A stretch of 64,000 bases of DNA, from the NCBI GenBank assembly GCA_947502645.1, contig CANNAD010000001.1:124001-188000 (forward strand). The letters are read 5' to 3'. Within the stretch, counting starts at the first letter, position 1. Each line of letters opens with the position of its first letter. Under the pieces are notes generated by a model. The model ran no database searches. It was not told the DNA's origin and saw nothing but the letters and a program-made list of their open reading frames with translations. Source of the DNA: an uncultured Micrococcaceae bacterium (GTDB lineage Bacteria; Actinomycetota; Actinomycetes; Actinomycetales; Micrococcaceae). Of the stretch, positions 1,713 to 36,521 are shown one piece after another. Made by a program: the position numbers and the translations under genes.

Positions 1713-1785
1713 GATCCCAGCCTAGGTCACCGCAAGGATCGGTCATAGAGTCTTCTCCCTGAGGTGTCCTCGTTAGACTTGGAAC

Positions 1786-2763: not shown

Positions 2764-3642
2764 ATGCCTTCTCGTTCAGCCAGTGCTATCAGGGAACGAC
2801 GGCGACGTCGCGCCCAGACCGCGCTGGTCATGCTGGTGCTCATTTTACTGACCAGTGCGGGCGGTTTCCTGGCGGTATCCGCTCTTGAACCATCGGAGGC
2901 GGTCCTTCGGGAACGGTGCGCCGCCGTCGTCGGCCCTGATACATACGAGCTGACGCCAGAGCAGGCGTCCAACGCGGCCCTTATCGCCGGGGTTGCCCTG
3001 AGCAGGGGGCTGCCGCCACGGGCGGCGTCCATCGCCATCGCGACGGCAATCCAGGAGTCCGGGCTGCGGAACCTGGACTATGGGGACAATGCCGGCCCCG
3101 ACTCGCGCGGGCTGTTCCAGCAGCGACCATCGCAGGGGTGGGGTACCGAGGAGCAGATCATGGACCCGTATTATGCTGCCCACGCGTTCTATAACGGGCT
3201 CGTGAAGGTACCTGGTTACACCGAGATGCCAGTGACAGAAGCCGCTCAGCAGGTCCAGATCAGCGCCTTCCCCGAAGCATATGCCGATCATGAGCCGGAA
3301 GCCCGAGCTTTCGCATCGGCACTCACGGGGCATTCGGCCGCTGCCCTGGACTGCGTACTGCGAAGCGCGGATGGTTCCGGGAATCCTGTACAGGTTGTCG
3401 AGGAAGCCGCCGTTGTCTTCGGGAACCAGTCCGCGGTCATCGATGGATCCAACATCACGTTGAAGGCCACGGACCGGACGGGGTGGGCGACGGCGCAGTG
3501 GGCGGTGGCCAATGCTAAGCGACTGAATCTGACCGGGGTTTCATTCGGCGGCCTCCAGTGGGTTCGCTCCGGCGGGTGGTCCACTGCGGAAACCGCGCCC
3601 GGAATCGTCACCGTCCAGGTGGCGACGGGCGCCTGGCAGTAG
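2764..3642 (+). CDS. Hypothetical secreted/membrane-anchored protein with lysozyme-like fold signature
   Basis: N-terminal TM helix; 'AIATAIQESGLRNLDYGDNAGPDSRGLFQQRPSQGWG'; ATG abuts the dapD stop. Confidence 0.75.
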   Translation: MPSRSASAIRERRRRRAQTALVMLVLILLTSAGGFLAVSALEPSEAVLRERCAAVVGPDTYELTPEQASNAALIAGVALSRGLPPRAASIAIATAIQESGLRNLDYGDNAGPDSRGLFQQRPSQGWGTEEQIMDPYYAAHAFYNGLVKVPGYTEMPVTEAAQQVQISAFPEAYADHEPEARAFASALTGHSAAALDCVLRSADGSGNPVQVVEEAAVVFGNQSAVIDGSNITLKATDRTGWATAQWAVANAKRLNLTGVSFGGLQWVRSGGWSTAETAPGIVTVQVATGAWQ

Positions 3643-3681
3643 GTCCGCCTAGAACAGCCATCTACGAACTAGGCTGGTGCC

Positions 3682-4695
3682 ATGAGAATTTTGGTTACCG
3701 GCGGAAGCGGTTACATAGGCTCCCACACAGTGCTCGCTCTCCTTGAGGCCGGGCATGATGTTGTGGTGATAGATAATCTGGCGAACTCGAATCAGGAGTC
3801 CCTTCGCCGGGTGGGGGAAATTGCGGGCAGGTCCGCGGAGTTCCTTCAGGTTGATCTGCTGGACGAGACAGCTCTGGATAACGCATTCAGCAGCCAGAAT
3901 GTTGACGCCGTCATCCACTTCGCAGGCTTGAAAGCCGTGGGCGAGTCTGTTGAGAAACCGCTGTATTACTACCACAACAACGTGGGCGGCACACTGAATC
4001 TGTTGCGCTGCATGGAGCGGCACGACGTCCGCACCCTCGTCTTCAGTTCGTCGGCGACAGTCTATGGGGCTTCCGAGGAAGTTCCCCTGGTGGAGAAGCT
4101 TCCTCTCGACGCCGTCAACCCATATGGGCGGACCAAGGAACAGATCGAGGACATCCTGTCCGACGTCGGCGCTGCTGACGAGCGGTGGAACATTGCGCTT
4201 CTGCGTTACTTCAACCCGGTAGGCGCGCACGAGTCCGGGAGAATCGGCGAGGACCCAACAGGGACGCCGAACAACCTATTGCCGTTCGTTGCCCAGGTTG
4301 CTGTGGGACGGCGCGAGAAGGTCATGGTTTTCGGCAATGATTATCCGACGCCGGACGGTACCGGAATCCGCGACTATATTCACGTGGTGGACCTGGCGGC
4401 AGGACACCTGGCAGCCTTGGACTACGTCCATTCCCACAGCGGCGTCCACCGTTGGAATCTGGGGACCGGGAAGGGGTCCTCCGTACTGGAGGTCCTCGCG
4501 GCATTCTCTGCCGCCGCAGGCCACGAGGTGCCTTACGAGTTCGGTCCCCGACGTCCGGGCGATGCTGCCGTGAGCTATGCGGATCCCTCCGCTGCGCTTG
4601 CAGACCTCGGTTGGTCCGCACACAAAACCCTGCAGCAGATGTGTGACGATCACTGGCGCTGGCAGAAGGAAAATCCCCTGGGTTACTCCTCCTGA
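3682..4695 (+). CDS. galE: UDP-glucose 4-epimerase
   Basis: MRILVTGGSGYIGSHT; YGRTK; RYFNPVGAHESGRIGEDP. Confidence 0.95.
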   Translation: MRILVTGGSGYIGSHTVLALLEAGHDVVVIDNLANSNQESLRRVGEIAGRSAEFLQVDLLDETALDNAFSSQNVDAVIHFAGLKAVGESVEKPLYYYHNNVGGTLNLLRCMERHDVRTLVFSSSATVYGASEEVPLVEKLPLDAVNPYGRTKEQIEDILSDVGAADERWNIALLRYFNPVGAHESGRIGEDPTGTPNNLLPFVAQVAVGRREKVMVFGNDYPTPDGTGIRDYIHVVDLAAGHLAALDYVHSHSGVHRWNLGTGKGSSVLEVLAAFSAAAGHEVPYEFGPRRPGDAAVSYADPSAALADLGWSAHKTLQQMCDDHWRWQKENPLGYSS

Positions 4696-4713
4696 GCATC
4701 CCCCTTAAATGAC

Positions 4714-4762
4714 TCTGCAGTAGGGGCAGTTCCCGGATCCCGGGAACTGCCCCTACTGCAGA
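4714..4762. terminator. Bidirectional hairpin between convergent galE and gltA
   Basis: Perfect 23-bp inverted repeat tctgcagtaggggcagttcccgg-atc-ccgggaactgcccctactgcaga. Confidence 0.85.
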
Positions 4763-4777
4763 ATCAACAAGTTTGTA

Positions 4778-6070
4778 CTAGATAGCCGGGTACTGCCGCT
4801 CGGGCTCACCCGTGTACAGCTGACGCGGACGGCCGATCTTGGTCTGCGGGTCCTGCATCATTTCGCGCCACTGAGCGATCCAGCCGGGAAGCCGGCCCAT
4901 GGCGAACAGCACCGTGAACATCTTCTCCGGGAAGCCCATGGCCTTGTAGATCAGGCCCGTGTAGAAGTCCACGTTCGGGTACAGCTTGCGCTCAATGAAG
5001 TAGTCATCCGCGAGGGCCTTCTCCTCAAGCCGCATGGCGATGTCCAGCAGTTCATCGTTGCCGCCGAGTTTTTCAAGAATCTCGTGGGCTGTGGCCTTGA
5101 CGATCTTGGCGCGCGGGTCATAGTTTTTGTAGACACGGTGTCCGAAGCCCATCAGCTTCACACCGTCTTCCTTGTTCTTGACCTTCTCCATGAAGTCCTC
5201 AGGCTCCATGCCCTTGGCCTTGATCTCGCGCAGCATGTTGAGCACAGCCTCATTGGCGCCGCCGTGAAGCGGGCCGAACAGCGCGTTGATGCCAGCTGAG
5301 ACGGAGGCGAACATGTTGGCGTTGGAACTGCCCACCAACCGAACCGTTGACGTTGAGCAGTTCTGTTCATGGTCCGCATGAAGAATGAGCAGCAGGTCCA
5401 GGGCCTTGACCATCGTGGGATCAAGCTCGTAGGGCTCTGCAGGCAGCCCAAAGCTGAGCCGCATGAAGTTCTCCACCAGGTTCATGGAGTTATCCGGGTA
5501 GAGCATCGGCTGACCGATGGACTTCTTGTGCGCGTACGCAGCGATTACCGGAAGCTTGGCCATCAGACGGAACGTGGAGAGCTCTACCTGTTCGTCGTCG
5601 AACGGGTCCAGGCTGTCCTGATAGAACGTGGACAGTGCTGATACTGCCGAGGACAGGACGGGCATCGGGTGTGCGTCCCGCGGGAAGCCGCCAAAGAAGC
5701 CCTTCAGCTCCTCATGCAGCAGAGTGTGCCTGCGAATTCGCTGGTCGAATGCGTCCAGCTCGGAGGCGCTCGGCAGGTTTCCGTAGATCAGGAGGTAGGA
5801 AACTTCCAGGAAGCTTGAGTGCTGCGCGAGCTGGTCGATGCCATACCCGCGGTACCGCAGAATGCCCTTCTCACCGTCGATGAATGTGATGGCGGAGGTT
5901 GTTGCCGCGGTATTCATGAAACCGGGGTCAAAGGTGACATTTCCGGTTTCCTTCAGCAGACGGGAAACGTCGTAGCCGTGGTTACCCTGTGCCGCTTGTA
6001 CGCGTGGAAGGTCCAGTCCCTGTTGCTGGTCCTGGCCGAAAACGAGTCTGGCTCCGGCTTGCTCAGTCAT
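4778..6070 (-). CDS. gltA: Citrate synthase
   Basis: Full-length type II-like citrate synthase; GPLHGGANEAVLNML, GFGHRVYKNYDPRAK, NVDFYTGLIYKAMG. Confidence 0.95.
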   Translation of the reverse strand: MTEQAGARLVFGQDQQQGLDLPRVQAAQGNHGYDVSRLLKETGNVTFDPGFMNTAATTSAITFIDGEKGILRYRGYGIDQLAQHSSFLEVSYLLIYGNLPSASELDAFDQRIRRHTLLHEELKGFFGGFPRDAHPMPVLSSAVSALSTFYQDSLDPFDDEQVELSTFRLMAKLPVIAAYAHKKSIGQPMLYPDNSMNLVENFMRLSFGLPAEPYELDPTMVKALDLLLILHADHEQNCSTSTVRLVGSSNANMFASVSAGINALFGPLHGGANEAVLNMLREIKAKGMEPEDFMEKVKNKEDGVKLMGFGHRVYKNYDPRAKIVKATAHEILEKLGGNDELLDIAMRLEEKALADDYFIERKLYPNVDFYTGLIYKAMGFPEKMFTVLFAMGRLPGWIAQWREMMQDPQTKIGRPRQLYTGEPERQYPAI

Positions 6071-6239: not shown

Positions 6240-7358
6240 CTACGCCAGCAGCCTCTCGACAGCAGCGTCCACGCGTTCGTCTGTGGCGGTCAGCGCTACC
6301 CTGATATGGCCGTTGCCGGCCTCACCGTAGAACGTTCCCGGACCGACGACGATCCCTCTGTCTGCCAGCCTGCCAACCGTTGTCCAGGTGTCCTCGCCGG
6401 CACTACCCCATAGGTAAAGGCCAGCCTCTGACTGGCTGATCTCCACGCCGAAATCCTGAAGGGCTGGCAGCAGCCTCTGCCTCCGGGAGCGATAGAGGTT
6501 CTTCTGCTCAACGACGTGCGCTTCGTCCTCGAGCGCAGCGCGCATAGCTTCCTGCACTGGGAAGGGAACGATCATCCCGGCATGCTTGCGGCTGTTGACC
6601 AGGTTGGCCATTACCTCCGGATCACCGCCGATGAAGGCTGCACGGTATCCGGCCATATTGGATTGCTTGCTCATGGAGTACACCGTCAGTAGGCCCTTAT
6701 GGCTTCCAGCGGACGCTACCGGATCTAGAATGCTCGGCACTGTGTGATCATCCCAATCACCCCATCCGAGCTCCGCATAACACTCATCAGAGGCCACGAG
6801 CGCACCGATGGCTCGCGCCTGTTCAACGATGGATGCCAGTGACTCCCTGGAACGAACAGCTCCCGTGGGGTTACCGGGGCTGTTGACCCAGATGAGCCGC
6901 ACGCGGGATCTCGTCGCGGCATCGAGCTCATCGAGGTTGTCAGCGGCAACGGAAGTGGCGCCTGCCAGACGCGCACCGACGTCGTAGGTGGGATACGCCA
7001 CCACAGGACGGACGACGATGTCGCCGGCCCCCAGCCCCAACAGCGTTGGAAGCCACGCCACCATTTCCTTGGATCCGACCGTCGGCATGATGTGCTGCGG
7101 ATCGAGATCTGGAACCCCACGGCGTCGCGCGAACCACGCCGAAATGGCGGCCCTCAGGGCGTCGGTCCCGTGCGTCGTCGGGTAACCGGGCGCGTCCGAG
7201 GCCGCGGCCAGAGCGTCCCGGACTACTGCGGGGGTGGGATCAACAGGGGTTCCGATGGAAAGATTGACGATGCCGTCAGCGTGCTGGGATGCCCGGGCCA
7301 GGTACGGCGCCATCGCCTCCCACGGGTACTCGGGCAGATCAAGGCCGAATTGGGCCAC
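6240..7358 (-). CDS. dapC: Succinyldiaminopimelate aminotransferase
   Basis: Class I/II aminotransferase; NSPGNPTGAV, SDECYAELGW, YSMSKQSNMAGYR; adjacent to fdxA. Confidence 0.9.
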   Translation of the reverse strand: MAQFGLDLPEYPWEAMAPYLARASQHADGIVNLSIGTPVDPTPAVVRDALAAASDAPGYPTTHGTDALRAAISAWFARRRGVPDLDPQHIMPTVGSKEMVAWLPTLLGLGAGDIVVRPVVAYPTYDVGARLAGATSVAADNLDELDAATRSRVRLIWVNSPGNPTGAVRSRESLASIVEQARAIGALVASDECYAELGWGDWDDHTVPSILDPVASAGSHKGLLTVYSMSKQSNMAGYRAAFIGGDPEVMANLVNSRKHAGMIVPFPVQEAMRAALEDEAHVVEQKNLYRSRRQRLLPALQDFGVEISQSEAGLYLWGSAGEDTWTTVGRLADRGIVVGPGTFYGEAGNGHIRVALTATDERVDAAVERLLA

Positions 7359-7361
7359 GCC

Positions 7362-7685
7362 TCACTCCTGGTTCTGCGGAGGCAGGGACGCGATGCCGGG
7401 GTGGTCCTTGTGCGTATTGCCGAGTTTGGCTGCACCGCCAGGAGAACCGAGGTCATCGAAGAACTCGACGTTGAACTTGTAGTACTCCGCCCATTCCTCG
7501 GGCGTGTCATCCTCGTAGTAGATAGCTTCGACCGGGCAAACGGGCTCGCATGCGCCGCAATCCACGCACTCGTCCGGATGTATGTAGAGGGAGCGTTCAC
7601 CTTCATAGATGCAATCTACGGGGCATTCTTCGATGCACGCCTTGTCCTTGACATCCACGCACGGCTGCGCGATTACATACGTCAC
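7362..7685 (-). CDS. fdxA: 7Fe/4Fe-4S ferredoxin (GTG start at 7685)
   Basis: VTYVIAQPCVDVKDKACIEECPVDCIYEGERSLYIHPDECVDCGACEPVCPVEAIYYEDD. Confidence 0.95.
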   Translation of the reverse strand: MTYVIAQPCVDVKDKACIEECPVDCIYEGERSLYIHPDECVDCGACEPVCPVEAIYYEDDTPEEWAEYYKFNVEFFDDLGSPGGAAKLGNTHKDHPGIASLPPQNQE

Positions 7686-7798
7686 GACCCAACGCCTTTC
7701 CTTCGGGCACTTTGACTCACCCAATACACCGGGAGCCACTCTTCGACCAGCTTAGTAACCAAATCCGCAATACCCTAGCCGGACCATAAACTATCAGC

Positions 7799-8023
7799 AT
7801 GGACCCTCGAAATCTTCTCCTGTCATTGGAAGTCGGAGCCCGCGTAGTGGTCCGCTACCGAATTGATGTCGGGTTCACGGATGCGTTGGGGGATCTCCTG
7901 GAGATCAGCGACACTGCGTGCACGGTGAGGACCCGGCGGACCGACGTCGCGATAGCTCTGGACACTGTGACGGCCGCCCGCGTGGTGCCTCCCGCTCCCC
8001 CTCGCCGAAGCCGCTCGCACTGA
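7799..8023 (+). CDS. Small SH3-like protein resembling the N-terminal domain of Rv0428c-type GNATs
   Basis: VGARVVVRYRIDVGFTDALGDLLEISDTACTVRTRRTDVAIALDTVTAARVVPPAPP. Confidence 0.55.
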   Translation: MDPRNLLLSLEVGARVVVRYRIDVGFTDALGDLLEISDTACTVRTRRTDVAIALDTVTAARVVPPAPPRRSRSH

Positions 8024-25226: not shown

Positions 25227-25280
25227 GAAACCGAACCGGTCAACTCAAATGATGATTCGACGGGTGGTTAGGCTGACTGC

Positions 25281-25994
25281 ATGGCGACAGTTATTCTCGT
25301 GCGGCACGGCCGCACCACAGCAAATGCCACCGGGCTGCTGGCCGGTAGGTCCTTCGGCGTAAGCCTGGACCAGATCGGGCGCGACCAAGCGGCTCTCACC
25401 GGAGAACGGCTGGCGACAGTTCCCCTCGTGGCGGTGGTGTCGAGCCCCCTTGAGCGTTGCCAGCAGACCGCCCAGCACATCCTCGATCGACAGACGGGCA
25501 CGCCATTCACGGAGGATGATCCCGATCTCATCGAATGCGACTACGGCCAGTGGCAGGGCCGCACGCTCACCGATCTCGCAACCGAAGATTTGTGGCCGCT
25601 GGTGCAGTCGCAACCATCCGCCGTCGTCTTCCCCGGCGGTGAATCCATGGCGGCGATGCAGGCCCGGTCGGTGGCAGCGATTCGCCGCCACGATGCAGCC
25701 TTCGAAGCCGAACATGGACCCGAGGCCGTGTGGGTTGCGGTCAGCCATGGTGACATCATCAAGTCAATACTCGCCGACGCGCTCGGCATGCACCTTGACC
25801 TGTTCCAGCGCATCAACGTGGGCCCCGCATCCGTATCGATCGTGACCTATGGTGCTGGCCGGCCGAGCGTCCACGCAACCAACACCGATGCAGGTGATCT
25901 TTCGTGGCTGTCGAAGGGTACGCACTCTGGCGATGCGCCGGTGGGTGGCGGGGCAGGACAAGGCGCCGTGAACCACAAGCGCCTAGAATACTGA
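25281..25994 (+). CDS. Histidine phosphatase (MSMEG_4193-like phosphoglycerate mutase family)
   Basis: ILVRHGRTTAN; SSPLERCQQTA; VWVAVSHGDIIKSILADALG. Confidence 0.9.
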   Translation: MATVILVRHGRTTANATGLLAGRSFGVSLDQIGRDQAALTGERLATVPLVAVVSSPLERCQQTAQHILDRQTGTPFTEDDPDLIECDYGQWQGRTLTDLATEDLWPLVQSQPSAVVFPGGESMAAMQARSVAAIRRHDAAFEAEHGPEAVWVAVSHGDIIKSILADALGMHLDLFQRINVGPASVSIVTYGAGRPSVHATNTDAGDLSWLSKGTHSGDAPVGGGAGQGAVNHKRLEY

Positions 25995-25995
25995 T

Positions 25996-26550
25996 ATGCC
26001 TACACGTGTTCACGAGTTTGCCTGGCCTGATCGGGTCGTCGTTGGCACCATCGGACCTCCGGGGGCACGCACGTTCTACCTGCAGGTGCGTGCAGGGACA
26101 CAGGTGGTGACCATCGCCCTCGAGAAGCAGCAGTCGGCGCTGCTCGCGGAGAAGATCGACGAGATTCTCGACCAGCTCATCACCGTCGAGGGAAACCGCT
26201 TCAGCGTTCCGACGAGCACTCCCATTGAACTTGTCGACAATGACCAGCTCGAAGATGTCCAGGAGCAGTTCCGCGTCGGCGCCATGAGCCTGGGCTGGGA
26301 CCCAACCACGGCCCAGGTTGTCATCGAAGCCCACGCCATCACCGACGGCGATGCTGATAACAACGACGAATTGCTTGCTGAGGACGGCGCGCGCGAAACT
26401 GAAATGCTGCTGGTGCGAATGCCTGTTGGCACTGCCCGCGCATTCGCCAAGCGCACCCGCGAGATCGTCGGCGCCGGACGCCCGGCGTGCCCGCTCTGCG
26501 GTTACCCCATAGACGCCGACGGACACATCTGCACCCCTCCCGAGGCCTGA
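25996..26550 (+). CDS. DUF3090 family protein
   Basis: PDRVVVGTIGPPGARTFYLQVRAGTQVVTIALEKQQ; C-terminal zinc ribbon CPLCGYPIDADGHIC. Confidence 0.9.
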   Translation: MPTRVHEFAWPDRVVVGTIGPPGARTFYLQVRAGTQVVTIALEKQQSALLAEKIDEILDQLITVEGNRFSVPTSTPIELVDNDQLEDVQEQFRVGAMSLGWDPTTAQVVIEAHAITDGDADNNDELLAEDGARETEMLLVRMPVGTARAFAKRTREIVGAGRPACPLCGYPIDADGHICTPPEA

Positions 26551-27317
26551 TGCCAGCACAGGACCTGGTGACCGCCGAACTGACACTCACCGGGCGCATC
26601 AGGACGGCTTCCAACGCTACATTTCTGGGCAACATCGGCGACGTGAGCGTCGTCTATAAGCCGATAGCCGGCGAAAGTCCGCTGTGGGACTTCCCCGACG
26701 GCGCCCTGGCGCACCGCGAGGTAGCCGCCTACCTGGTCTCGGAAGCCTTCGGCTGGGACGTGGTACCGCACACCTGGCTCCGCGATGGTCCGGCGGGCGA
26801 AGGCATGGTGCAACTCTGGCAGGAGCAAGACCCCGAACAGATCGCCGTCGACCTGGTCGCTACAGACCAGGTGCCGGAGACGGGCTGGAAACACGTTCTC
26901 GAAGGGCAAGACCAAACCGGGCAGATGGTCACCCTCGTTCACGAGGACTCACCAGCGCTCAGGCGAATGGCTGTGTTTGACCTGGTCGTCAACAACGCCG
27001 ACCGCAAAGGCGACCACATCCTTGCCATGACGGACGGACGCCGATACGGCGTGGATCATGGGCTCACCTTCCACCGTGACCACAAACTGCGCACGGTTCT
27101 GTGGGGATGGCTGGGAGAGACTCTGACTGCCGAGGAGCACGACGGCCTCGAGCGTGTCAGGGAAGGACTACACGGTGAACTGGGCCGACACCTGGCGGAC
27201 TTGCTCAGCGCCGAAGAAATCTCAGCGCTCGCTGCTCGCTGCGCTGGATTGCGCCTGACAGGGCGGTTTCCGGCTCCCTCCGGTGAGATGCCGGCGGTTC
27301 CCTGGCCACTGTTCTGA
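26550..27317 (+). CDS. SCO1664-family protein (phosphatidylinositol kinase-like)
   Basis: TGA/ATG overlap with DUF3090; VVYKPIAGESPLWDFPDG, FDLVVNNADRKGDH, GVDHGLTFH. Confidence 0.88.
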   Translation: MPAQDLVTAELTLTGRIRTASNATFLGNIGDVSVVYKPIAGESPLWDFPDGALAHREVAAYLVSEAFGWDVVPHTWLRDGPAGEGMVQLWQEQDPEQIAVDLVATDQVPETGWKHVLEGQDQTGQMVTLVHEDSPALRRMAVFDLVVNNADRKGDHILAMTDGRRYGVDHGLTFHRDHKLRTVLWGWLGETLTAEEHDGLERVREGLHGELGRHLADLLSAEEISALAARCAGLRLTGRFPAPSGEMPAVPWPLF

Positions 27318-27469
27318 GGGAATTACGGCTAGGGGCTTCGCCGGCCTTTGTGAGGATAAGCCGGTCCCTGCGGGGCGCCACGCACTAGGCAAGAACGGTG
27401 CATTGAGTCTTTTGGCCCGTTTAGATGAGGGTCACGACGACTACCGGTGATCCTACTTCTGCGCGGCGG

Positions 27470-27991: not shown

Positions 27992-28179
27992 ACGACGACT
28001 CTAGGACTGCACATATGCTTTCGCTCGTCGGCACCTGCTATCTGTGGATAACTCAACCTCACAGGGCACGCGGTCGTCAGACGTTGAACGGGAACTCCTC
28101 CACGTCGCCGCCCGGAGAAACGTCACGGAGCGGCGAACGCCGGCACCGGGGCCATCCTGTCTATCGGCCGCTTCGTTCG

Positions 28180-28485
28180 TCAGGCGACCTGCAGTCGCTG
28201 GTCGCCGACGACGTATTCAACGGCCATCCCGCCGCCGACGGCTTCAAGGTAGCCGCGGATCGTCCCGATCTTTGCGCTGTCGAGGTCGCCGTGCTCGATC
28301 TTGGAGATCTGGCGTTGGCCGACGCCGATGCGCTCTGCCAGCTGGGCCTGTGTGAGACCGGCCTGCTCGCGCAGCTCACGCAGGCGATAGGCGCGGACCT
28401 CGGCGAGCATCCGCTCCTTGTGCGCCTCGACGCGTTCCCGATCCACAGGCTGCTCTGCGACGAAGTCCTTCAGGGTCCTGGTCAT
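28180..28485 (-). CDS. XRE-type helix-turn-helix antitoxin-like protein
   Basis: LRELREQAGLTQAQLAERIGVGQRQISKIEHGDLDSAKIGTIRGYLEAVGG; ATG at 28485 (MTRTLKDF). Confidence 0.8.
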   Translation of the reverse strand: MTRTLKDFVAEQPVDRERVEAHKERMLAEVRAYRLRELREQAGLTQAQLAERIGVGQRQISKIEHGDLDSAKIGTIRGYLEAVGGGMAVEYVVGDQRLQVA

Positions 28486-28490
28486 CTCAG

Positions 28491-28652
28491 TCACTCTCCT
28501 CTTAGCCTGCACAGGTGGTCGTCGAACAGGTCGTCGGCCACCGGGATGTTCTTCTTGTACCAGCGAGTCCAGTTACCTGCCTTGTCACCGGCCGTCAGCA
28601 TAGACCCTGCAAGGTCTGCCTGCAACGAACCCCCATTCCACTGCGGCGCCAT
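28491..28652 (-). pseudogene. 3' remnant of a RelE/HigB-type toxin gene upstream of the XRE antitoxin
   Basis: Reading by hand: ...AGDKAGNWTRWYKKNIPVADDLFDDHLCRLRGE*, a typical toxin C-terminus; no intact N-terminal half found upstream. Confidence 0.6.
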
Positions 28653-28740
28653 CCCATATAAGTCCCTTGGGTGCAGTGATCGATCATAATTACACCCACC
28701 CGAGCGCCGTTGCCGCTGCTACCGTCCCCGCCCATAACGC

Positions 28741-28785
28741 TACGTTGAAACAGAACTCCACTACGTTGCGTAGCCGAATAACGTC
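28741..28785 (-). repeat. Short dispersed direct repeat, copy A
   Basis: tacgttgaaacagaactccactacgttgcgtagccgaataacgtc; about 37/45 identical to copy C. Confidence 0.6.
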
Positions 28786-28839
28786 ATGTTCGTACACGCT
28801 GTCACGTGCGAAGCCTCGGAGTTGGGGCACAATAATCGT

Positions 28840-29280
28840 GTGGACGACTTGCGTGTTCCCCCGGGGCCCGGTTCGCCCCGCGGCCTCCGGGTACCGGCAG
28901 GAGAGCTGGCCGAGCAGTTCTCTCGCGCCTCCGGCCCTGGTGGCCAGAGCGTCAATACCGCCGACTCACGTGTGCAACTCAGTCTCGATCTAGGCACGAC
29001 AACGACGCTGAGCGAGGTCCAACGCAAACTCGCCATCGACCGCCTCTCCGAGAGACTCTCCGGCACGGTGCTTACCATCAGCGCCTCCGAGCACCGCTCC
29101 CAACGGCGTAACAGGGCCGCGGCGAGGCAACGCCTCGCGGCGGCCCTGCGAGACGCAGTGGCTCCCCCTGTCGTACGGCGAGCGACCCGCCCGACGAGTG
29201 GCTCGCGACGTCGTCGCCTCGAAGCAAAACGATTGCGCTCCGAGGCCAAGCGCAACCGCAGGCGCCCTGGGCCCGAATGA
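28840..29280 (+). CDS. arfB: Peptidyl-tRNA hydrolase ArfB/YaeJ-like (GGQ) ribosome-rescue factor
   Basis: FSRASGPGGQSVNTADSRVQLSLDL plus basic Arg/Lys-rich tail; GTG start at 28840. Confidence 0.85.
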   Translation: MDDLRVPPGPGSPRGLRVPAGELAEQFSRASGPGGQSVNTADSRVQLSLDLGTTTTLSEVQRKLAIDRLSERLSGTVLTISASEHRSQRRNRAAARQRLAAALRDAVAPPVVRRATRPTSGSRRRRLEAKRLRSEAKRNRRRPGPE

Positions 29281-29289
29281 GCTGCCTGA

Positions 29290-29530
29290 TTTATGGAGTG
29301 TGGCACGCCGCTCGAGCCGCAGCTCGTAATTCGACTGCAGATTCATCCAGAACTCATCGGAGGTCCCGAAGTACCTCGCCAGACGGATCGCCGTGTCAGC
29401 CGTGATTCCCCACTTGCCGTGCACGATCTCGTTAATCCGACGCCGTGAGACGTCGATCGACACGGCGAGCTTGTTCTGAGTGATGCCGACGAGGTCACCG
29501 ACCAGCCGCCCCAAATTCAACCGCGTTCCG
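29290..29530 (-). pseudogene. HigA-type antitoxin remnant inside a longer shadow ORF
   Basis: LVGITQNKLAVSIDVSRRRINEIVHGKWGITADTAIRLARYFGTSDEFWMNLQSNYELRLE; the HigA N-terminus is replaced by unrelated sequence. Confidence 0.65.
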
Positions 29531-29545
29531 CAGCCGAATAACCTG
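29513..29545 (-). repeat. Short dispersed direct repeat, copy B (partial)
   Basis: aaattcaaccgcgttccgcagccgaataac; about 28/33 identical to copy C. Confidence 0.55.
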
Positions 29546-29875
29546 TTGCGCGCGGGCTCTTCGCACCGGAAGCCGAAAGCATCTTCACTCTGGATGCTGG
29601 CTGTGGTCTTCGACGTCTGGTTTCGCCCGCAGGACGTCGGCGATCTCTTCCTCCGGACGCGGCGCCGTCGTCTGGTCGACTTCAATCTCCGGGACGGTGG
29701 GTTCTTCAGGGTCGGGAATGTGCCCATTGGACGAATACTCATTGTGGGAAGACACGGCGAATCCTTCGGTTGGCAACACCCACAAGCCTATGCCGATCAC
29801 GGCGGCTCTGGCGATACGCCTTGCCGCTAGCTCGTCGGGTTCGTCGCCGCTAGTAGTAGAAGGGCAGCTCTTGGT

Positions 29876-30562
29876 TTGTTTCGACCGGAACAACGTCGTG
29901 GTTCGGTCAATAGCGAGTCGATCACCGGGATCGACTTGGACGACATCCGTGACGCCTTTGCTGACACGGCTCCTGCTGGTGCCGTCAGCGACCACGACGT
30001 CTCTGTCGTGCTGCGCATGCGCACCCCAGGCGGCAAGATGAGTCTGCTCTCCGACTTCGTCACCAGCCGCCTCAAGAGCCTGCCCGAGGGCACCCTGCGC
30101 CAGGCGGACCTGGACAACCTGCTGGTCATCGAGCGGATCTTCAGCCCGCTCGGTGCGGCCGTCAATGCCTCCCGATACATCGCTTTGGCCACCCATCCGG
30201 GTCTGCGGGAGGAATCCGACCGCGTTGATGCCGCCGAGGCGGCACTCGATGACACCATCCCTGCCGACGACCCACGCGTGGCACAGGTCGCTGCCGAACG
30301 GCACGCCTTCGAACAGGCGTTGAACGCCGTCATCGAGGATTCCGGCCTGGCGGAGGACGATGATGCGATTTTCGACTCCTGGGAAGATCTGCACCCCGCT
30401 GCCCCTGATGAAGACGAGGTCCGCCAAGACCCTGACACGGGGCAAGAGTCCATGAGCGCAGTCGAAGCCATCGGAAAGATGCCCTACGACTGGTCCCCGG
30501 CCCGCCTGCGTTGCATGGAACTGGCCCAAGAACTCGCGGCCCACGAGCCGCCCGCTTGCTAA
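29876..30562 (+). CDS. Hypothetical protein in accessory region (possibly partial)
   Basis: Acidic, compositionally protein-like 228-aa ORF; no family recognised; start uncertain. Confidence 0.4.
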   Translation: MFRPEQRRGSVNSESITGIDLDDIRDAFADTAPAGAVSDHDVSVVLRMRTPGGKMSLLSDFVTSRLKSLPEGTLRQADLDNLLVIERIFSPLGAAVNASRYIALATHPGLREESDRVDAAEAALDDTIPADDPRVAQVAAERHAFEQALNAVIEDSGLAEDDDAIFDSWEDLHPAAPDEDEVRQDPDTGQESMSAVEAIGKMPYDWSPARLRCMELAQELAAHEPPAC

Positions 30563-30592
30563 GACAGGGCCTATGGAACCGGAATTCAGTCA

Positions 30593-30637
30593 CACATTGA
30601 AGCGGAACTCCACCGCGTTCCGTAGCCGAACAACGTC
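30593..30637 (-). repeat. Short dispersed direct repeat, copy C; minus strand reads ...NAVEFRFNV*
   Basis: cacattgaagcggaactccaccgcgttccgtagccgaacaacgtc; first 22 nt match the ychF 3' end (35377-35398) at 19/22. Confidence 0.6.
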
Positions 30638-30920
30638 TACGTAGACCACTGCAATCCCGGTGGCCCAGAGACTCCACTCCGTCTAGCCGTGATCCCAGCT
30701 CAGGGAAGACAACTCACCCCAGAGCAGCTCGGGTACCGCATCAACCGCCGGGTCCAAGAGAAACTCGATTCTCGACACCGATGCCGCGCAACACCGGATA
30801 TGGCGACAGCAACTCACGGACTTCTTCGGCCGGCGTCGCGTGCCGGTTCCCCAAACTGGGTACTCGGATTCCCAGGTCCGGGGTAAATGTTCTCCCGTTG
30901 TAGACATAAAACATCCGTGA

Positions 30921-33596
30921 TCAGACGGGCGTACCCGTCCCGCCATGGGCGTCAGCATCATGCGCCACCGGATCGATACCGAAAAAAAACACATGCGGAG
31001 CTTCGCCAGGCCACACAACGAAGTACTCGCCGGTTTCAACTCGGACACGCGGCTCATCCTCGTCCTCTATGTCCTCAAACACCCCGAGCGCAATCGAAGT
31101 ATCGCCAACCGGCTCGAGGCCCTCCTTCATCTCAGGCTTGCGGCAAGAAATCAAGGTCGTGCGCCGGTCGAAGAGAATTGCCTCTTCATACAGCGAGGAA
31201 GTCTCAAAGTGGCTCACACGGGCGAGCGCCTCTGAGAACGCAGTCGAATACCACTCACCCAAGTCCGTGAGTCCTCCATAGGGCGTCAAGAGAACGTAGT
31301 GCTCCGCCTGGTCTCCGAGCGAATCAATCTGTTCACGGATCGCCAGCGCCGACGGTTCAAGTACTCCCTCCTTAAGAGAACGCAGCATCCCGACGATCTT
31401 GCGTTCCTCGCCGTCGGTGAAGCCGCGCGCGATCATCTGGCCGAGATCTGCCGGGTCGGCGTAGGTTTGGTTAAAGATCCTGTCGACGAGGTAGAGCTTC
31501 GGAACGCGGAAGTTCATCCCGAGGATCGGTCTCGATGCGTCAGCCCCTTCTGCAACCTCACTTGAATGAGAAATCATGTCAGCGAGTCGCTCGCCAGCGT
31601 CGAGGGTCTCCTTCAGCGCGGTCCGCAAGACGTCAATTCGTGTGCCGGACAGCGGCTCGGTGGCCAGACGCGAATCTTCCGCGGTCTTCCATTTGTCGAT
31701 CTCTTCGACCAACGATTTCTTGAGATTAACCTCCTCTGTGGTTGAGCCTCCGTCATGCTCGTCGAGAAGCCTCAGGAGACGCTGGTACTCTGAGGCAGTC
31801 TGCTGATCATTGGCCGGGGGAAGCGGTCCATACGACAATGCGAGAGCGTTCAAAAGGGCCCTGTCAATGTAATGAGATAGCTCGAGCAACTGGGCGTGAA
31901 CAGACCCACTGAGCTCCGTCTCCCACCAGTCCCAGCGGCTGAACGGGGCCTCCCCTCGTTCGGCGAGACCTCGGGCGGCGAGGATCTCAGCCCATGTGCC
32001 ACTGGGCGTCAACAGCGCTCGGAGGTCATCATCGGTTGGGTCTCGATCGTCGCCCTTATCTGCGAGGTAGTCCAACCAGCCCGCCAGAACTAGTTGACCC
32101 GCTCTGACTTGCGCTCTCTGGCCGCCATCTCGGTCGGAATACTCGAACAGACCACCGAGTTCCCCTGCAGCGCGGACGGCAAATTCCGGCTTATGCGCAT
32201 CCAGAGCGAGTTTGACCAGTTCGACCATCGCCCACGTCGCGCGTCTTGAGAGATCCCCACGCTTCTCCGTTGTGGAGTACGCCGCAAGGTTTTGCACGCA
32301 TAGGACGATCCGGCCAGGAATCTGATCGAACTCCGTCCCGCCTTGCCGAAGGACGTCGAGCCAAATTCGGGTGAAGCTGCGGAGGCATTCGTCAACGTAT
32401 TCGGCCGAGCCTGTACGAGGAGCTTCAAGTGTCCTCGTCATAGCTTGGCTAACAAACATACTTGCCGCGCGTGGCGATAGGAGAGCATCCTGTTCAACTT
32501 CTCCGATGCTGCGAAATAGCCAGTCGCGTCGGGTGATGGATGCACGACGAGACGTGTCGACGCCGTCTAGCTGGATCATCCACACACCTCTCACGACGTG
32601 TCCGAGCAATTCGACGGCTCGCTCTGCCGTGGCGTAAGCACCGGATCGAATGTTGGTTCCGACGGCATCTTTCAGACTCGCGATCTCACGTTCTGTCTCT
32701 TCATCGGGCGTGACCACCTCCGGAGCCTCAAACTCGACGCTCGACTGCAGCAGTCGGATGATCCGGCTTCGGCCCAGGCCGTCCAGAGGTTCGTTTGTGA
32801 TAACGCGGAACGCTGTTTCGCCAAGGCGGGTACGATCGCCGGGCTCAACTTCCAGGATGATTTGGGCCGGGGCGTAGTCCTTGAGACTCTCCGCCTTGGT
32901 AGAGCGACCCTCAGTCGCCGGCGGCGCGAGTGCGTCGAGCGCTTGCCTCACAGCTTTCACCCTGATTGCTTTAACTACAGCGCCGACTTGAGGCACTGGC
33001 ACTCGAAGTGTGACGGTCTTAGGCCTAAGGTCAAAATGGGTCCAACCCCATGTGACGAGGCCGTCCAGCTGCTTAGTCGCTTCGGAATACCTATGCGAAA
33101 CCTCTTCGAGACGACTGGACAAGGAGCCAACTAAGGAGGTGCGGACCACTTCGTCGAGCAACGACGGGCGTCCGAAAAGCTTCGTCAATCTGACCGTCGA
33201 TACCACCAATAGGACAACTGTAGGTACAAACCAGACGAGGGCAATGAAGAGGACGCCGAGGCCGCTGGACAACCAAATCGTCTCGATAGCAATGACAGCG
33301 TTTCCGACAAGACCAACGCCGACGAACCGGCCGGCTCCGATGTACTTGAGCACTCGGTCTCGAGAGGCTCCGATCGCGAGCGGAGTCTCGGCAAATAGTT
33401 GCGCGGCTATAGCGAGTCCTGCCAACCCAACTGACAGGAACGTCGTTTGCACCTGCCATAAGATCCCGTCACCTCCGGGTGCGGCCGGCAGGTGCAAGGC
33501 GAGCCACGGGGGATCACCAAGGAGGCGGGTGATCGCAAGCAGTGCCACGCTCACGAATAGCGAGCACCCTAGGAAGGTCCAGCTCCGCCACGTCAC
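30921..33596 (-). CDS. Unknown 891-aa protein: four N-terminal TM helices plus a large soluble region
   Basis: Long ORF with protein-like composition; GTG start preceded by GGGGGA; no family recognised. Confidence 0.8.
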   Translation of the reverse strand: MTWRSWTFLGCSLFVSVALLAITRLLGDPPWLALHLPAAPGGDGILWQVQTTFLSVGLAGLAIAAQLFAETPLAIGASRDRVLKYIGAGRFVGVGLVGNAVIAIETIWLSSGLGVLFIALVWFVPTVVLLVVSTVRLTKLFGRPSLLDEVVRTSLVGSLSSRLEEVSHRYSEATKQLDGLVTWGWTHFDLRPKTVTLRVPVPQVGAVVKAIRVKAVRQALDALAPPATEGRSTKAESLKDYAPAQIILEVEPGDRTRLGETAFRVITNEPLDGLGRSRIIRLLQSSVEFEAPEVVTPDEETEREIASLKDAVGTNIRSGAYATAERAVELLGHVVRGVWMIQLDGVDTSRRASITRRDWLFRSIGEVEQDALLSPRAASMFVSQAMTRTLEAPRTGSAEYVDECLRSFTRIWLDVLRQGGTEFDQIPGRIVLCVQNLAAYSTTEKRGDLSRRATWAMVELVKLALDAHKPEFAVRAAGELGGLFEYSDRDGGQRAQVRAGQLVLAGWLDYLADKGDDRDPTDDDLRALLTPSGTWAEILAARGLAERGEAPFSRWDWWETELSGSVHAQLLELSHYIDRALLNALALSYGPLPPANDQQTASEYQRLLRLLDEHDGGSTTEEVNLKKSLVEEIDKWKTAEDSRLATEPLSGTRIDVLRTALKETLDAGERLADMISHSSEVAEGADASRPILGMNFRVPKLYLVDRIFNQTYADPADLGQMIARGFTDGEERKIVGMLRSLKEGVLEPSALAIREQIDSLGDQAEHYVLLTPYGGLTDLGEWYSTAFSEALARVSHFETSSLYEEAILFDRRTTLISCRKPEMKEGLEPVGDTSIALGVFEDIEDEDEPRVRVETGEYFVVWPGEAPHVFFFGIDPVAHDADAHGGTGTPV

Positions 33597-33739
33597 CTCG
33601 CCGTGTCCCCCACATCGGCGGCCCTCAATTGCGCCTCAACATGGTGTGCCAAGGCGGGCGCCGTCAGGACGACGTGAGTGCTGCCTAGCCCATCTTCCTG
33701 GTGTTTCCCATGCTTCATCACTACTTCTCCCAATGTCAT
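33593..33739 (-). CDS. Small 48-aa ORF (41 aa from ATG at 33718) overlapping the 891-aa gene start by GTGA
   Basis: Hand translation MTLGEVVMKHGKHQEDGLGSTHVVLTAPALAHHVEAQLRAADVGDTAR*; TTGGGAGAA precedes the second ATG; absent from the ORF track because it is <60 aa. Confidence 0.45.
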   Translation of the reverse strand: MTLGEVVMKHGKHQEDGLGSTHVVLTAPALAHHVEAQLRAADVGDTAR

Positions 33740-33826
33740 TTCTCCCAACTATCCGTACCCGTATCGGAGCGTATGGCGACTCGATGTTCTGTCCCTATGC
33801 CTGCCCTGCTGTCCATCCGTTGGCGG

Positions 33827-35041
33827 TCACAAATAATTTATGTCGAAAGTGACGGAATTTCTGTCGTCGAGATCGGTGCTAGAGCACTCAAAGAAGACGA
33901 CCTTTGTCGCTTCCAAAGGAACGGATGTTAGCCACCCTCGCCGGCGATCACCGGGACCCTGGACGGCAACTGGTGTACACCAGCCCTCGCCCACGTCGTA
34001 TGCAACGCATAGTTGGGAATTTGTTACTACCGCCGAGCCATGAATTTCAAGCTGTTCTCCCACCCTCTGCTCGCCGATGACTTCGATATGGGGTCGCCCG
34101 TCATAGCTAATAGTTGCCGAGCGGTGTTGGGCCCATGGAATCAAATGGCGATAGAAGTCCATGACCGACGATACAAACGCCGGATTGGAGTTGTGTTTCT
34201 CAATACGTGCCTCAAGTAGGGTCTGGCGAACCCCGCCCATCGAACTTCGCGCTGGGTAATAACCAGCATGCTCTTGGCACAGCGCTTGAACAGATTGGGC
34301 ATCGCTCAATGGGTGGGATGCGGTTATCTGCGCCACTCCGTAGCTACCACTAGGAACGAGACGTCCTTTAGCTCGCTCCAGGCTCCGCATCCATCTCGGT
34401 CGTTGCAGTGCCTCCGCCGCCACGATGGCCTGTATCAAGACCGGCTCACAGTTAGCGTCAAGGGCAGCTTGATTCACAAACTCCCAAGTGTCTTCTCCTA
34501 TATCCCTCCGCGCCGCTGCCAATTTCTGTTCGACACTTAGCGCCGGGGAGCGTAAGAGCTGCTGGAAAGCAGTGGCGAGTACCGCGGCAAAGACGGCAGT
34601 CCATACAGCGAAAATGAGTTCATCCGGCTCTGGGATGAAAGCCGCGTACCAGTGATACGTAAAGTAGGACAGGACGACGAGCCCTGCGATCAGAACGAGA
34701 TTAAAGACGTAGTAGAACCACAACACGGGTCCCCTCCCTGCTCCCCCGCGCCGCAATCGCCAAAGGGCGCGACCATCGTTACCCAACGCATATGGGACGC
34801 CCATGCACACCAGTGCGACCAGTGCGTTACCGCCCAGCCGTTCCCCCGTGATGGCCAGCAGGCTACCAACCGCATAAGTCGGGAAGCAGCGGAAAAGCAA
34901 GTACCTCAATGCACTCGATCGAGGAGCACTGTCGAGCGCTGTCCGGACTGACATATAGGACTCTGGCCAATGGGATTGCATGCTTGTGTAAAGGACATGC
35001 AAGAAGCCTGCCCCTAGCAATCCGAGTATTACTGACGTCAT
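33827..35041 (-). CDS. Unknown 404-aa multi-TM protein with a lysozyme/lytic-transglycosylase-like motif
   Basis: About five N-terminal hydrophobic segments, then 'EPVLIQAIVAAEALQRPRWMRSLERAKGRLVPSGSYGVAQITASHPLSD', resembling the E...S.GvmQ signature. Confidence 0.7.
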   Translation of the reverse strand: MTSVILGLLGAGFLHVLYTSMQSHWPESYMSVRTALDSAPRSSALRYLLFRCFPTYAVGSLLAITGERLGGNALVALVCMGVPYALGNDGRALWRLRRGGAGRGPVLWFYYVFNLVLIAGLVVLSYFTYHWYAAFIPEPDELIFAVWTAVFAAVLATAFQQLLRSPALSVEQKLAAARRDIGEDTWEFVNQAALDANCEPVLIQAIVAAEALQRPRWMRSLERAKGRLVPSGSYGVAQITASHPLSDAQSVQALCQEHAGYYPARSSMGGVRQTLLEARIEKHNSNPAFVSSVMDFYRHLIPWAQHRSATISYDGRPHIEVIGEQRVGEQLEIHGSAVVTNSQLCVAYDVGEGWCTPVAVQGPGDRRRGWLTSVPLEATKVVFFECSSTDLDDRNSVTFDINYL

Positions 35042-35312
35042 GGGATTACCTTGAACGGTGAGCGCCCCAAAACAAAATCAACGACTGATCAGCGCCAGGC
35101 CAGACAATTTCTGAGAGGCCACCAGCTCCCTTCCACGCAGACCATACCTTGGCTCGATCGTACAACCGACAACCGTGGACTGGACTTCTGGGCGAAGGCA
35201 ATCGCAGATTCACTTCCACCTATATCCGAGAACTTGTAGCGCCAAAGCCTAGGGCCGCATTAGACGAAGATACATGAGGGTTAATCTCCTTTAGGCCCTC
35301 GAACCTGTTATA

Positions 35313-35354
35313 AGAAATGCCGCCCTCATCGTTTCCGATGAGGGCGGCATTTCT
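35313..35354. terminator. ychF terminator hairpin
   Basis: Perfect 19-bp arms agaaatgccgccctcatcg-tttc-cgatgagggcggcatttct. Confidence 0.85.
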
Positions 35355-35373
35355 ACTAATTCAGGCGAAGGGT

Positions 35374-36459
35374 CTACACATTGAAGCGAAATTCAACCAC
35401 ATCGCCGTCGACCATGACATAGTCCTTGCCTTCAATGCGGACCTTGCCGCGGGACTTGGCCTCGGACATTGATCCGGCGTCCATGAGGTCGTCGAAGGAG
35501 ACTACTTCAGCTTTGATGAAGCCTCGTTGGAAGTCTGAGTGAATGACTCCTGCAGCCTGCGGGGCGGTGTCTCCACGGTGGATGGTCCAGGCCCGCGTTT
35601 CTTTTGGCCCGGCCGTCAGGTAGGTCTGCAGTCCAAGAGTGTGGAAGCCTACCCGCGCCAACTGGTCAAGGCCGGACTCATCCTGTCCGTTCATCTCCAG
35701 CATTTCGCGGGCCTCTTCCTCGTCCAGCTCAACGAGGTCCGACTCAAGCTTCGCGTCAAGGAAAATGCAGTCCGCAGGAGCAACGAGTTTCCGCAGTTCG
35801 TCCTGCTTCTCCGTACTGCCGAGAATTCCCTCGTCAGCGTTGAAAACATAGATGAAAGGCTTCGCCGTCAGGAGACCGAGTTCCTTCAGGTGCTCCATCT
35901 CAAGTTTATCGCTCGTGATCGACGAGAAGATCGTGTCCCCACGTTCCAGAACGGTCAGCGCAGCCTTCAGCGCAGTAAGTTCCGAAGCCTCGCGCTTCTT
36001 GATCTTCACTTCTTTTTCGATGCGTGGGATAGCCTTTTCCACGGTCTGGAGGTCGGCGAGGATCAGTTCGGTGTTGATCGTCTCCATGTCTGAGGCAGGG
36101 TCAACCTTGCCGTCAACGTGAATAACATCAGGGTCATCAAAGACGCGCACTACCTGTGCGATGGCCTCCGCCTCACGGATGTTGGCCAGGAACTGGTTAC
36201 CCAGGCCCTCGCCCTCAGACGCCCCGCGGACGATCCCGGCGATGTCAACGAACGAGACAGTCGCAGGCAATATGCGCTGCGAACCGAAGACCTCAGCCAA
36301 CTTGGCCAGACGCGGATCAGGCAGACTGACGACGCCAACATTCGGTTCAATAGTGGCAAACGGATAGTTTGCCGCCAGAACCTGATTGCGCGTCAGCGCG
36401 TTGAAGAGGGTTGATTTGCCGACGTTGGGCAGTCCGACGATGCCAATAGTAAGAGCCAC
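35374..36459 (-). CDS. ychF: Redox-regulated/ribosome-binding ATPase YchF
   Basis: GTG start: [22 protein letters not shown]; ends [10 protein letters not shown]. Confidence 0.96.
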
Positions 36460-36521
36460 GGTCCACCATCCTACCGGGGACCAAGTCCAAAATGTCACCG
36501 ACGCATGTCAGGCTAGCCACC

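What the first reader, a model, noticed from the sequence alone, without database searches (positions are those of the whole stretch)
30921..35041. Candidate undescribed membrane module: 404-aa lysozyme-like membrane protein, 48-aa ORF and 891-aa 4-TM protein
Seen: three minus-strand ORFs in one run, inside an island between otherwise conserved genes. The 891-aa protein has four N-terminal TM helices (WTFLGCSLFVSVALLAI; TTFLSVGLAGLAIAAQLF; FVGVGLVGNAVIAIETIW; VLFIALVWFVPTVVLLVV), then about 700 aa of soluble helical-looking sequence matching no family I know. The 404-aa protein pairs several TMs with a lysozyme-like motif. Known: multi-TM proteins with large soluble domains, encoded in small operons on islands, are common among antiphage effectors. 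Inference: this may be a two- or three-gene defence or envelope-stress system. Nothing in the sequence proves the function.
Basis: partly seen in the sequence, partly recalled or inferred. Interest (0 to 1): 0.75.

Follow-up and report, generated by a model that had tools for sequence, protein, structure and literature searches.

The report
Defence-gene cassette in a ychF array
The two membrane-protein genes are real but are not a fixed pair: they are cargo of one unit in an apparently unreported string of swappable gene cassettes attached to the end of the conserved gene ychF in many actinobacteria, a string that carries many anti-virus genes.

Summary
The 404-aa and 891-aa ORFs are real genes with relatives; the 48-aa ORF has none. 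They are not a conserved module: 8 genomes with 404 relatives lack 891, and 2 with 891 relatives lack 404. They are cargo of one unit (30590-35373) bounded by direct repeats of the last 30 bp of ychF. The window holds four repeats, delimiting three units. The same repeats form tandem arrays of short cassettes (median 1.9 kb) directly behind ychF in other Micrococcales: 89 of 287 sampled genomes have at least 2 copies, 47 at least 3; reversed-pattern control zero. Internal copies carry a conserved cassette-side half-site, and related cassettes recur in different genomes with ends at the repeat. No recombinase was found in the arrays; a Streptomyces phage satellite has the ychF end beside its tyrosine integrase. 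The 891 protein is a remote DUF2254-like 4-TM protein with an alpha-solenoid; it lies behind ychF or in such arrays in four lineages, near AbiH or AbiTii/ApeA in two, and beside CBASS in another. 404 is a 5-TM protein with lysozyme-like motifs, also found near restriction/DISARM and SoFic genes. Defence function is plausible but untested. The array is the main novelty.

The parts
35374..36498 (-). ychF (OBG-family GTPase), core gene whose 3' end is the attachment site
   Evidence: YchF-GTPase_C E=3e-38 and MMR_HSR1; present in 13 of 13 relatives searched
35374..35403 (-). core site 0: last 30 bp of ychF (GATGTGGTTGAATTTCGCTTCAATGTGTAG)
   Evidence: matrix score 37.9; shuffled background at most 9.7
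30590..35373 (-). cassette 1 (4.78 kb): 404-aa gene plus 891-aa gene, ending in core site 1
   Evidence: site positions; nothing matching this stretch in the sister species
33827..35041 (-). 404-aa protein: 5 TM, lysozyme-like helical domain (conserved E210, G235xxQ238, N284), C-terminal beta domain
33593..33748 (-). the '48-aa ORF' (51 aa from TTG); probably not a gene
   Evidence: no relatives; not present upstream of any 891 homologue
30921..33596 (-). 891-aa protein: 4 TM, beta domain, alpha-solenoid; remote DUF2254-like
30590..30619 (-). core site 1 (AACGCGGTGGAGTTCCGCTTCAATGTGTGA), matrix score 43.0
30620..30637 (-). cassette-side half-site of core 1 (GACGTTGTTCGGCTACGG), similar to half-sites in other arrays
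28738..30589 (-). cassette 2 (1.85 kb), containing an ArfB-like gene at 28786-29280 (+); ends in core site 2 (28738-28767, score 30.0)
28077..28737 (-). cassette 3 (0.66 kb), 79.6% identical over 0.42 kb to cassette 5 of the array in L102; ends in core site 3 (28077-28106, score 37.3)

Best explanation
The 404-aa and 891-aa genes are cargo of one unit in a tandem array of small gene cassettes inserted site-specifically at the 3' end of ychF. A cassette carries a copy of the last ~30 bp of ychF flanked by a conserved cassette-side half-site (consensus roughly AGAGGTTnnTnnGnnnCGG). Recombination with the ychF end places the newest cassette directly behind ychF, restores the reading frame, and pushes older cassettes downstream. 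The recombinase is supplied in trans and is most likely a tyrosine integrase. Cargo is mostly one to three genes: toxin-antitoxin, abortive-infection, restriction and miscellaneous accessory genes. The 891 protein is a horizontally moving stand-alone gene, most likely a membrane-anchored abortive-infection effector: 4 TM plus a beta domain remotely related to DUF2254, with an alpha-solenoid as sensing or scaffolding arm. 404 is an independent 5-TM protein with lysozyme-like motifs that happens to share the cassette. Shown: repeats, arrays, cassette sharing between genomes, synteny, remote homology. Inferred: recombinase class, direction of insertion, defence function.
For: Repeats: window sites score 30-43 against a shuffled maximum of 9.7; Demequina has an exact 32/32-bp copy of its ychF end just after its 891 gene. 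Arrays: 75 cassettes from 20 newly fetched segments and 4 earlier loci, median 1.9 kb. Survey: 257 of 287 Micrococcales genomes have the ychF end, 89 have at least 2 copies, 47 at least 3, and the reversed control gives 0 in every row. Half-site: about 80 internal sites share ~17 bp on the cassette side that ychF itself lacks, with a partial dyad CGGAAC-8 bp-GTTCCG at the best of 40 centres. Mobility: related cassettes recur in different genomes with ends at the core; the sister species lacks the cassettes. Recombinase class: the MulchRoom satellite carries a 13-codon ychF 3' end just upstream of its tyrosine integrase gene. 891: ychF-adjacent or in an array in the window, L029, L030 and L143, up to 75% identical between orders; neighbours AbiH, AbiTii, ApeA, CBASS cyclase/TRIP13/NucC. 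DUF2254: hhalign score 40.7 against block-shuffle 17.6 +/- 3.2, maximum 30.5.
Against: No recombinase was found in the arrays or window, and whether this genome encodes a matching integrase was not tested. Many cassettes carry non-defence genes (hydrolases, oxidoreductases, acetyltransferases), so neighbourhood alone is weak evidence for a defence function of 891. Three 891 homologues (L031-L033) show no ychF or core site within about 8 kb. DUF2254 similarity is remote (hhalign probability 44%) and the family's NDP motif is not kept. No excised circle or activity was observed.
Confidence: 0.65

Rival explanations
1. Fossil accretion at an ordinary prophage or satellite attachment site: full-size satellites or ICEs with their own integrase integrated at ychF and decayed, leaving att-bounded remnants. 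There is no dedicated cassette system.
For: MulchRoom-type satellites carry a ychF 3' end beside a tyrosine integrase; some arrays keep ~150-codon ychF fragments, as an integrative element might leave (L136, L137, L149); an integrase remnant lies near the 891 homologue in L033.
Against: Cassettes are mostly small (median 1.9 kb) with one- to three-gene cargo; related small cassettes recur between genomes with ends at the site; no integrase was recognised among the cargo; the conserved cassette-side half-site is shared across unrelated cargo.
Confidence: 0.3
2. 404 and 891 form a two-gene defence system, with 404 the wall- or membrane-acting effector and 891 the sensor.
For: Same strand, same cassette, 230 bp apart; both families occur separately near defence genes.
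Against: Never found together elsewhere: 0 of 8 genomes with 404 relatives have a convincing 891, and 0 of 2 tested 891 genomes have 404; no 404 hit in the other 891 loci.
Confidence: 0.1
3. 891 is a transport or envelope-stress accessory protein (DUF2254-like) carried as a niche-adaptive cassette and not a defence gene.
For: Remote homology to DUF2254, widespread membrane proteins of unknown function; arrays also carry many non-defence genes.
Against: Repeated placement beside abortive-infection and CBASS genes in separate lineages; very patchy distribution.
Confidence: 0.3
4. The repeats are a regulatory or chromosome-structure element that resembles the ychF end by chance or by gene conversion.
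For: All array copies lie in the ychF orientation.
Against: Copies lie downstream of ychF; conservation ends at the ychF stop codon; related cassettes recur with ends at the repeats; ends of 27 other window genes show no such tandem copies.
Confidence: 0.03

Closest known systems
Integron gene-cassette arrays (IntI/attC)
   Same: Tandem array of short one- to few-gene cassettes, each ending in a recombination site, tied to a fixed chromosomal site; cargo includes toxin-antitoxin and accessory genes
   Different: No IntI found; site is the 3' end of ychF plus a short half-site, with no consistent single-strand hairpin
SCC elements at the rlmH 3' end (staphylococci)
   Same: Tandem accretion at the 3' end of a conserved gene with direct repeats at every junction, including units without a recombinase
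   Different: Different gene, no Ccr serine recombinase seen, units far smaller
CIMEs / accretion-derived islands at 3' ends of genes
   Same: att-flanked units lacking their own recombinase, stacked in tandem
   Different: Known ones derive from decayed ICEs of many kb; here mostly 0.5-6 kb cassettes with a conserved half-site, up to 9 copies in one genome
MulchRoom phage satellite of Streptomyces (PMC10690885)
   Same: Carries the ychF 3' end as a likely attP next to its tyrosine integrase
   Different: Satellite phage with integrase and capsid genes; whether its integrase acts on the cassettes is unknown; the passages of the paper read do not name the target gene
DUF2254 (PF10011) membrane proteins
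   Same: 4 N-terminal TMs, beta domain with a PGD motif, following helical region; collinear profile alignment
   Different: 891 adds about 400 aa of solenoid and C-terminal domain, lacks the NDP-TA motif and is not recognised by the Pfam model

Membership tests
DUF2254 (PF10011) | Matches the Pfam model above its cut-off | tested here: not met
   PF10011 not among matches of the 3 family members scanned, even at E 10
DUF2254 (PF10011) | Profile-profile similarity beyond chance | tested here: met
   hhalign score 40.7 against reversed 15.7 and 60 block-shuffles 17.6 +/- 3.2, maximum 30.5
DUF2254 (PF10011) | Conserved ALSPxxNDPxTA motif | tested here: not met
   Aligned region in 891 reads IRSGAYATAERA
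Integron | IntI-type tyrosine recombinase next to the array | tested here: not met
   No tyrosine-recombinase motif in the 31 loci scanned, arrays and window included; a motif regex, not a full profile search
Integron | attC sites that fold as single-strand hairpins | tested here: not met
   6 sites folded: z -0.4 to -3.3, no common structure; only one below -2
Integron | Tandem short cassettes, each with one recombination site, shared between genomes | tested here: met
SCC | rlmH target and Ccr serine recombinases | tested here: not met
   Target is ychF; no credible serine-recombinase motif
CIME / non-autonomous integrative element | Cargo flanked by att-like direct repeats at a gene 3' end, no recombinase | tested here: met
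CIME / non-autonomous integrative element | Mobilised in trans by a related autonomous element | not testable with these tools
   A candidate integrase was seen only in MulchRoom; excision needs experiment
GH23-like lysozyme / lytic transglycosylase (404) | Catalytic Glu plus GxxQ and N motifs conserved in the family | tested here: met
   E210, G235, Q238, N284 invariant in 8 sequences
GH23-like lysozyme / lytic transglycosylase (404) | Significant match to a lysozyme family | tested here: inconclusive
   Only goose lysozyme at E=0.53; no lysozyme family in Pfam; fold model too poor
Known anti-phage system (PADLOC) | Model match for 891 or 404 | tested here: not met

The most novel reading that the evidence does not exclude
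Micrococcales, and at least some other actinobacteria, possess a further kind of natural gene-cassette system besides integrons and SCC: integrase-free cassettes captured by a trans-acting tyrosine recombinase into arrays at the ychF 3' end, serving as a shared reservoir of defence and toxin-antitoxin genes, and carrying undescribed membrane effectors such as the 891 family.
Probability: 0.45. Interest if true: 0.9.

Novelty: new variant of a known kind. Interest (0 to 1): 0.76.

Why it matters
If right, defence and toxin-antitoxin genes of a large actinobacterial order move as small cassettes into one predictable address, behind ychF. The array then becomes a catalogue of candidate defence genes whose boundaries can be read from a 30-bp pattern. 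It also raises a testable question: which recombinase exchanges integrase-free cassettes. The 891 family gives a first undescribed candidate effector to assay.

Tried and rejected
A three-gene module: rejected, since 404 and 891 do not co-occur and the 48-aa ORF is not conserved. 891 as a known family: no match in Pfam, NCBIfam, PADLOC or PDB sequences; Foldseek against PDB gives only generic designed and armadillo-type solenoids, all but one at E > 0.001. Hidden core site between 404 and 891: none above score 11, so they share one cassette or an older site was lost. Integron-like attC hairpins: not seen. Recombinase inside the arrays: not seen by motif; relatives of the MulchRoom integrase are absent from other phage and plasmid records. 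Viral-contig scans gave no answer. Plasmids: no 891 or 404 relatives. Literature on ychF as a cassette site: only S. pneumoniae prophage or mobilome papers and an unrelated review; broader searches did not find this array. The library holds open-licence papers only, so absence there is not proof.
Full report
WHAT IS THERE. The window is from an actinobacterium (2.67 Mb assembly). Its order is inferred to be Micrococcales from the named relatives of its genes and the general gene content; the genome itself is unnamed. The two large ORFs are as described: 891 aa at 30921-33596 (-) and 404 aa at 33827-35041 (-). Neither matches Pfam, NCBIfam or PADLOC or solved structures. The 48-aa ORF has no relative anywhere in the fetched DNA, and the upstream regions of the 891 homologues share no sequence with it or with each other.

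THE TWO GENES ARE NOT A PAIR. Relatives of 404 were found in 8 to 11 other genomes of the same order out of about 350-400 sampled in each of two searches. Relatives of 891 were found in none of 393 other family genomes, in two convincing cases of about 395 class genomes, in six loci of the GTDB-wide scan, one of them apparently the same Jiangella contig as, and once more inside an array (L143). The 8 other genomes with 404 relatives that were tested have no convincing 891, and the two 891 genomes tested have no 404.

WHAT THE PROTEINS LOOK LIKE. An AlphaFold model of 891 with seven sequences in the alignment (mean pLDDT 62) shows four TM helices, a small beta domain at 195-289 and an alpha-solenoid at 297-667 with high local confidence. 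Foldseek finds only generic helical-repeat proteins. The N-terminal half is remotely related to DUF2254: the profile-profile score is 40.7, against 15.7 for the reversed family and 17.6 +/- 3.2 (maximum 30.5) for 60 block-shuffled versions, with a collinear alignment from the TM region through the beta domain. The family's NDP motif is not kept and Pfam does not recognise it, so this is kinship, not membership. 404 has five TMs, a helical domain with invariant E210, G235xxQ238 and N284 and a C-terminal beta domain. The profile's only PDB match is goose lysozyme at E=0.53, over the helix that leads to the catalytic Glu. Its single-sequence model is too poor for a fold search. Positive-inside charges suggest the domain is cytoplasmic, which would sit badly with wall hydrolysis; this is unresolved.

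THE BOUNDARY. In the sister species (ychF 94% identical) only about 1 kb lies between ychF and the opp substrate-binding gene, against 11.4 kb here. Its genome has no match to the stretch from about 27.35 kb to 35.3 kb. Comparing the ends, short pieces of the ychF 3' end recur in the window. In Demequina the last 32 bp of ychF are repeated exactly just after the 891 gene. A weight matrix of the 30-bp ychF end finds four sites in the window, at 35374, 30590, 28738 and 28077, all on the ychF strand, scoring 30-43; five shuffled windows gave one hit above 8, at 9.7 (the window sites were among the 21 used to build the matrix, so the independent evidence is the arrays below). Ends of 27 other window genes show no such tandem copies. 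The unit from 30590 to 35373 therefore holds 404 and 891. The unit at 28738-30589 holds an ArfB-like gene. The unit at 28077-28737 is 80% identical over 0.42 kb to a cassette in another genome's array (L102).

AN ARRAY SYSTEM. The same repeats form tandem arrays directly behind ychF in other genomes: eight copies in L099, six in L102. A pattern search of 287 genomes of the order found the ychF end in 257; by my count of the printed table 89 have at least two matches and 47 at least three, up to nine, while the reversed pattern gave zero in every row. A few of these multiple matches lie on different contigs, so 89 is an upper bound for arrays. Twenty array segments were fetched; together with four earlier loci they give 75 intervals with a median of 1.9 kb. 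Internal sites share about 17 further bases on the cassette side that ychF itself lacks; conservation stops at the ychF stop codon on the other side. A partial dyad CGGAAC-8 bp-GTTCCG is the best of 40 possible centres and is weak in ychF's own site; this is the kind of core a tyrosine recombinase binds, but it is modest evidence. Related cassettes occur in arrays of different genomes with matches that begin or end at the core, for example L138_3, L150_2 and L151_2, or the shared first 0.6 kb of L142_2, L143_3 and L153_2. Cargo includes HTH/toxin-antitoxin genes, PIN, GNAT, OLD/AbiEii-type ATPases, GmrSD, AbiH, AbiTii, ApeA and HEC-06-like genes, and also hydrolases, methyltransferases and oxidoreductases.

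THE RECOMBINASE. No tyrosine- or serine-recombinase motif was found in the arrays or window (Pfam listed only the 25 commonest of 136 families, so a rare one could be hidden). The phage collection gave one informative match: the Streptomyces satellite MulchRoom carries the last 13 codons of ychF (7338-7376) just upstream of its 251-aa tyrosine integrase gene (6514-7269, minus strand). The passages of the paper that describes it which I read mention a tyrosine integrase but not the target gene (PMC10690885). So a tyrosine integrase that most likely uses the ychF end exists; that such an enzyme moves the cassettes is inference. Further relatives of this integrase were not found in phages or plasmids.

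891 AS CARGO. 891 homologues lie directly behind ychF in the window's array, in Actinopolyspora (L029, where the ychF C-terminus is altered inside the core: EFRSGLASGGKK instead of EFRFNV), in Demequina as a cassette of its own next to an AbiH cassette (L030), and in G596 in one cassette with AbiTii and ApeA (L143). The window and Actinopolyspora proteins, from different orders, are 75% identical. In Jiangella the gene is beside a CBASS cyclase, TRIP13 and NucC. Three further homologues (L031-L033) show no core site within about 8 kb. The 404 family likewise occurs beside type IIG restriction/DrmD-like genes and SoFic, without ychF sites.

MECHANISM AND CONFIDENCE. That the genes are cargo of a ychF-end cassette array: about 0.9. 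That a trans-acting tyrosine recombinase exchanges the cassettes: about 0.6. That 891 is an anti-phage effector: about 0.45. That 404 is one: about 0.35. The main rival is that the arrays are fossils of satellites or ICEs that used ychF as attB.

KNOWN OR NEW. The array works like an integron or SCC region but meets neither definition (no IntI or Ccr seen, no attC hairpins, different gene). It fits the broad class of att-flanked non-autonomous elements, with a conserved half-site and cassette-like sharing that I did not find described in the searchable literature. I therefore file it as a new variant of a known kind, with a real chance of being more. Descriptions of integrons, SCC and CIMEs here rest on my own knowledge.

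Noticed in passing
L156 (OQ784832.1 MulchRoom) 6514-7376: The satellite's ychF-derived sequence (last 13 codons of ychF) lies next to its tyrosine integrase; the passages of its paper that I read do not name the integration target.
   Followed up: partly
L029 (Actinopolyspora righensis) 6644-7741: YchF ends EFRSGLASGGKK instead of EFRFNV; the change lies inside the 30-bp core, as if the 3' end had been exchanged.
   Followed up: partly
L136, L137, L149, L154: Some arrays hold 75- to 160-codon ychF 3' fragments and not just 30 bp, perhaps marks of larger integrated elements.
   Followed up: no
L034 (Jiangella) 764-5183: A 1088-aa protein combining an RNase III-like domain, a dsRNA-binding motif and a histidine-kinase ATPase, next to a response-regulator-like gene and near the CBASS genes; unusual domain mix.
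   Followed up: no
window 28786-29280: An ArfB-like ribosome-rescue gene lies inside cassette 2; no DNA match to it in the sister species.
   Followed up: no
L095 (sister species), between the opp substrate-binding gene and ychF: A 269-aa ORF, possibly DUF2071-like, sits where the window has the array; genes at window 25266-27345 lie elsewhere in that genome.
   Followed up: partly
L142_2, L143_3, L147_3, L153_2, L154_2 (cassette names): Many cassettes start with a CGTTATTGACGnnnnCGTTAT-like element followed by a small toxin-like ORF; the same short unit recurs in many arrays.
   Followed up: partly
L157 (MT836021.1): A record labelled 'Bacteriophage sp.' from human faeces holds a full ychF followed by a toxin-antitoxin-like cassette; it looks like bacterial chromosome.
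   Followed up: partly
L158 (Nocardia farcinica NZ_LN868939.1) 5997-6026 and 7980-8009: Core sites also in Nocardia, so arrays are probably not limited to Micrococcales.
   Followed up: partly
L033 6302-6568: Fragment of a phage-type integrase near the 891 homologue of a Nocardia MAG.
   Followed up: no
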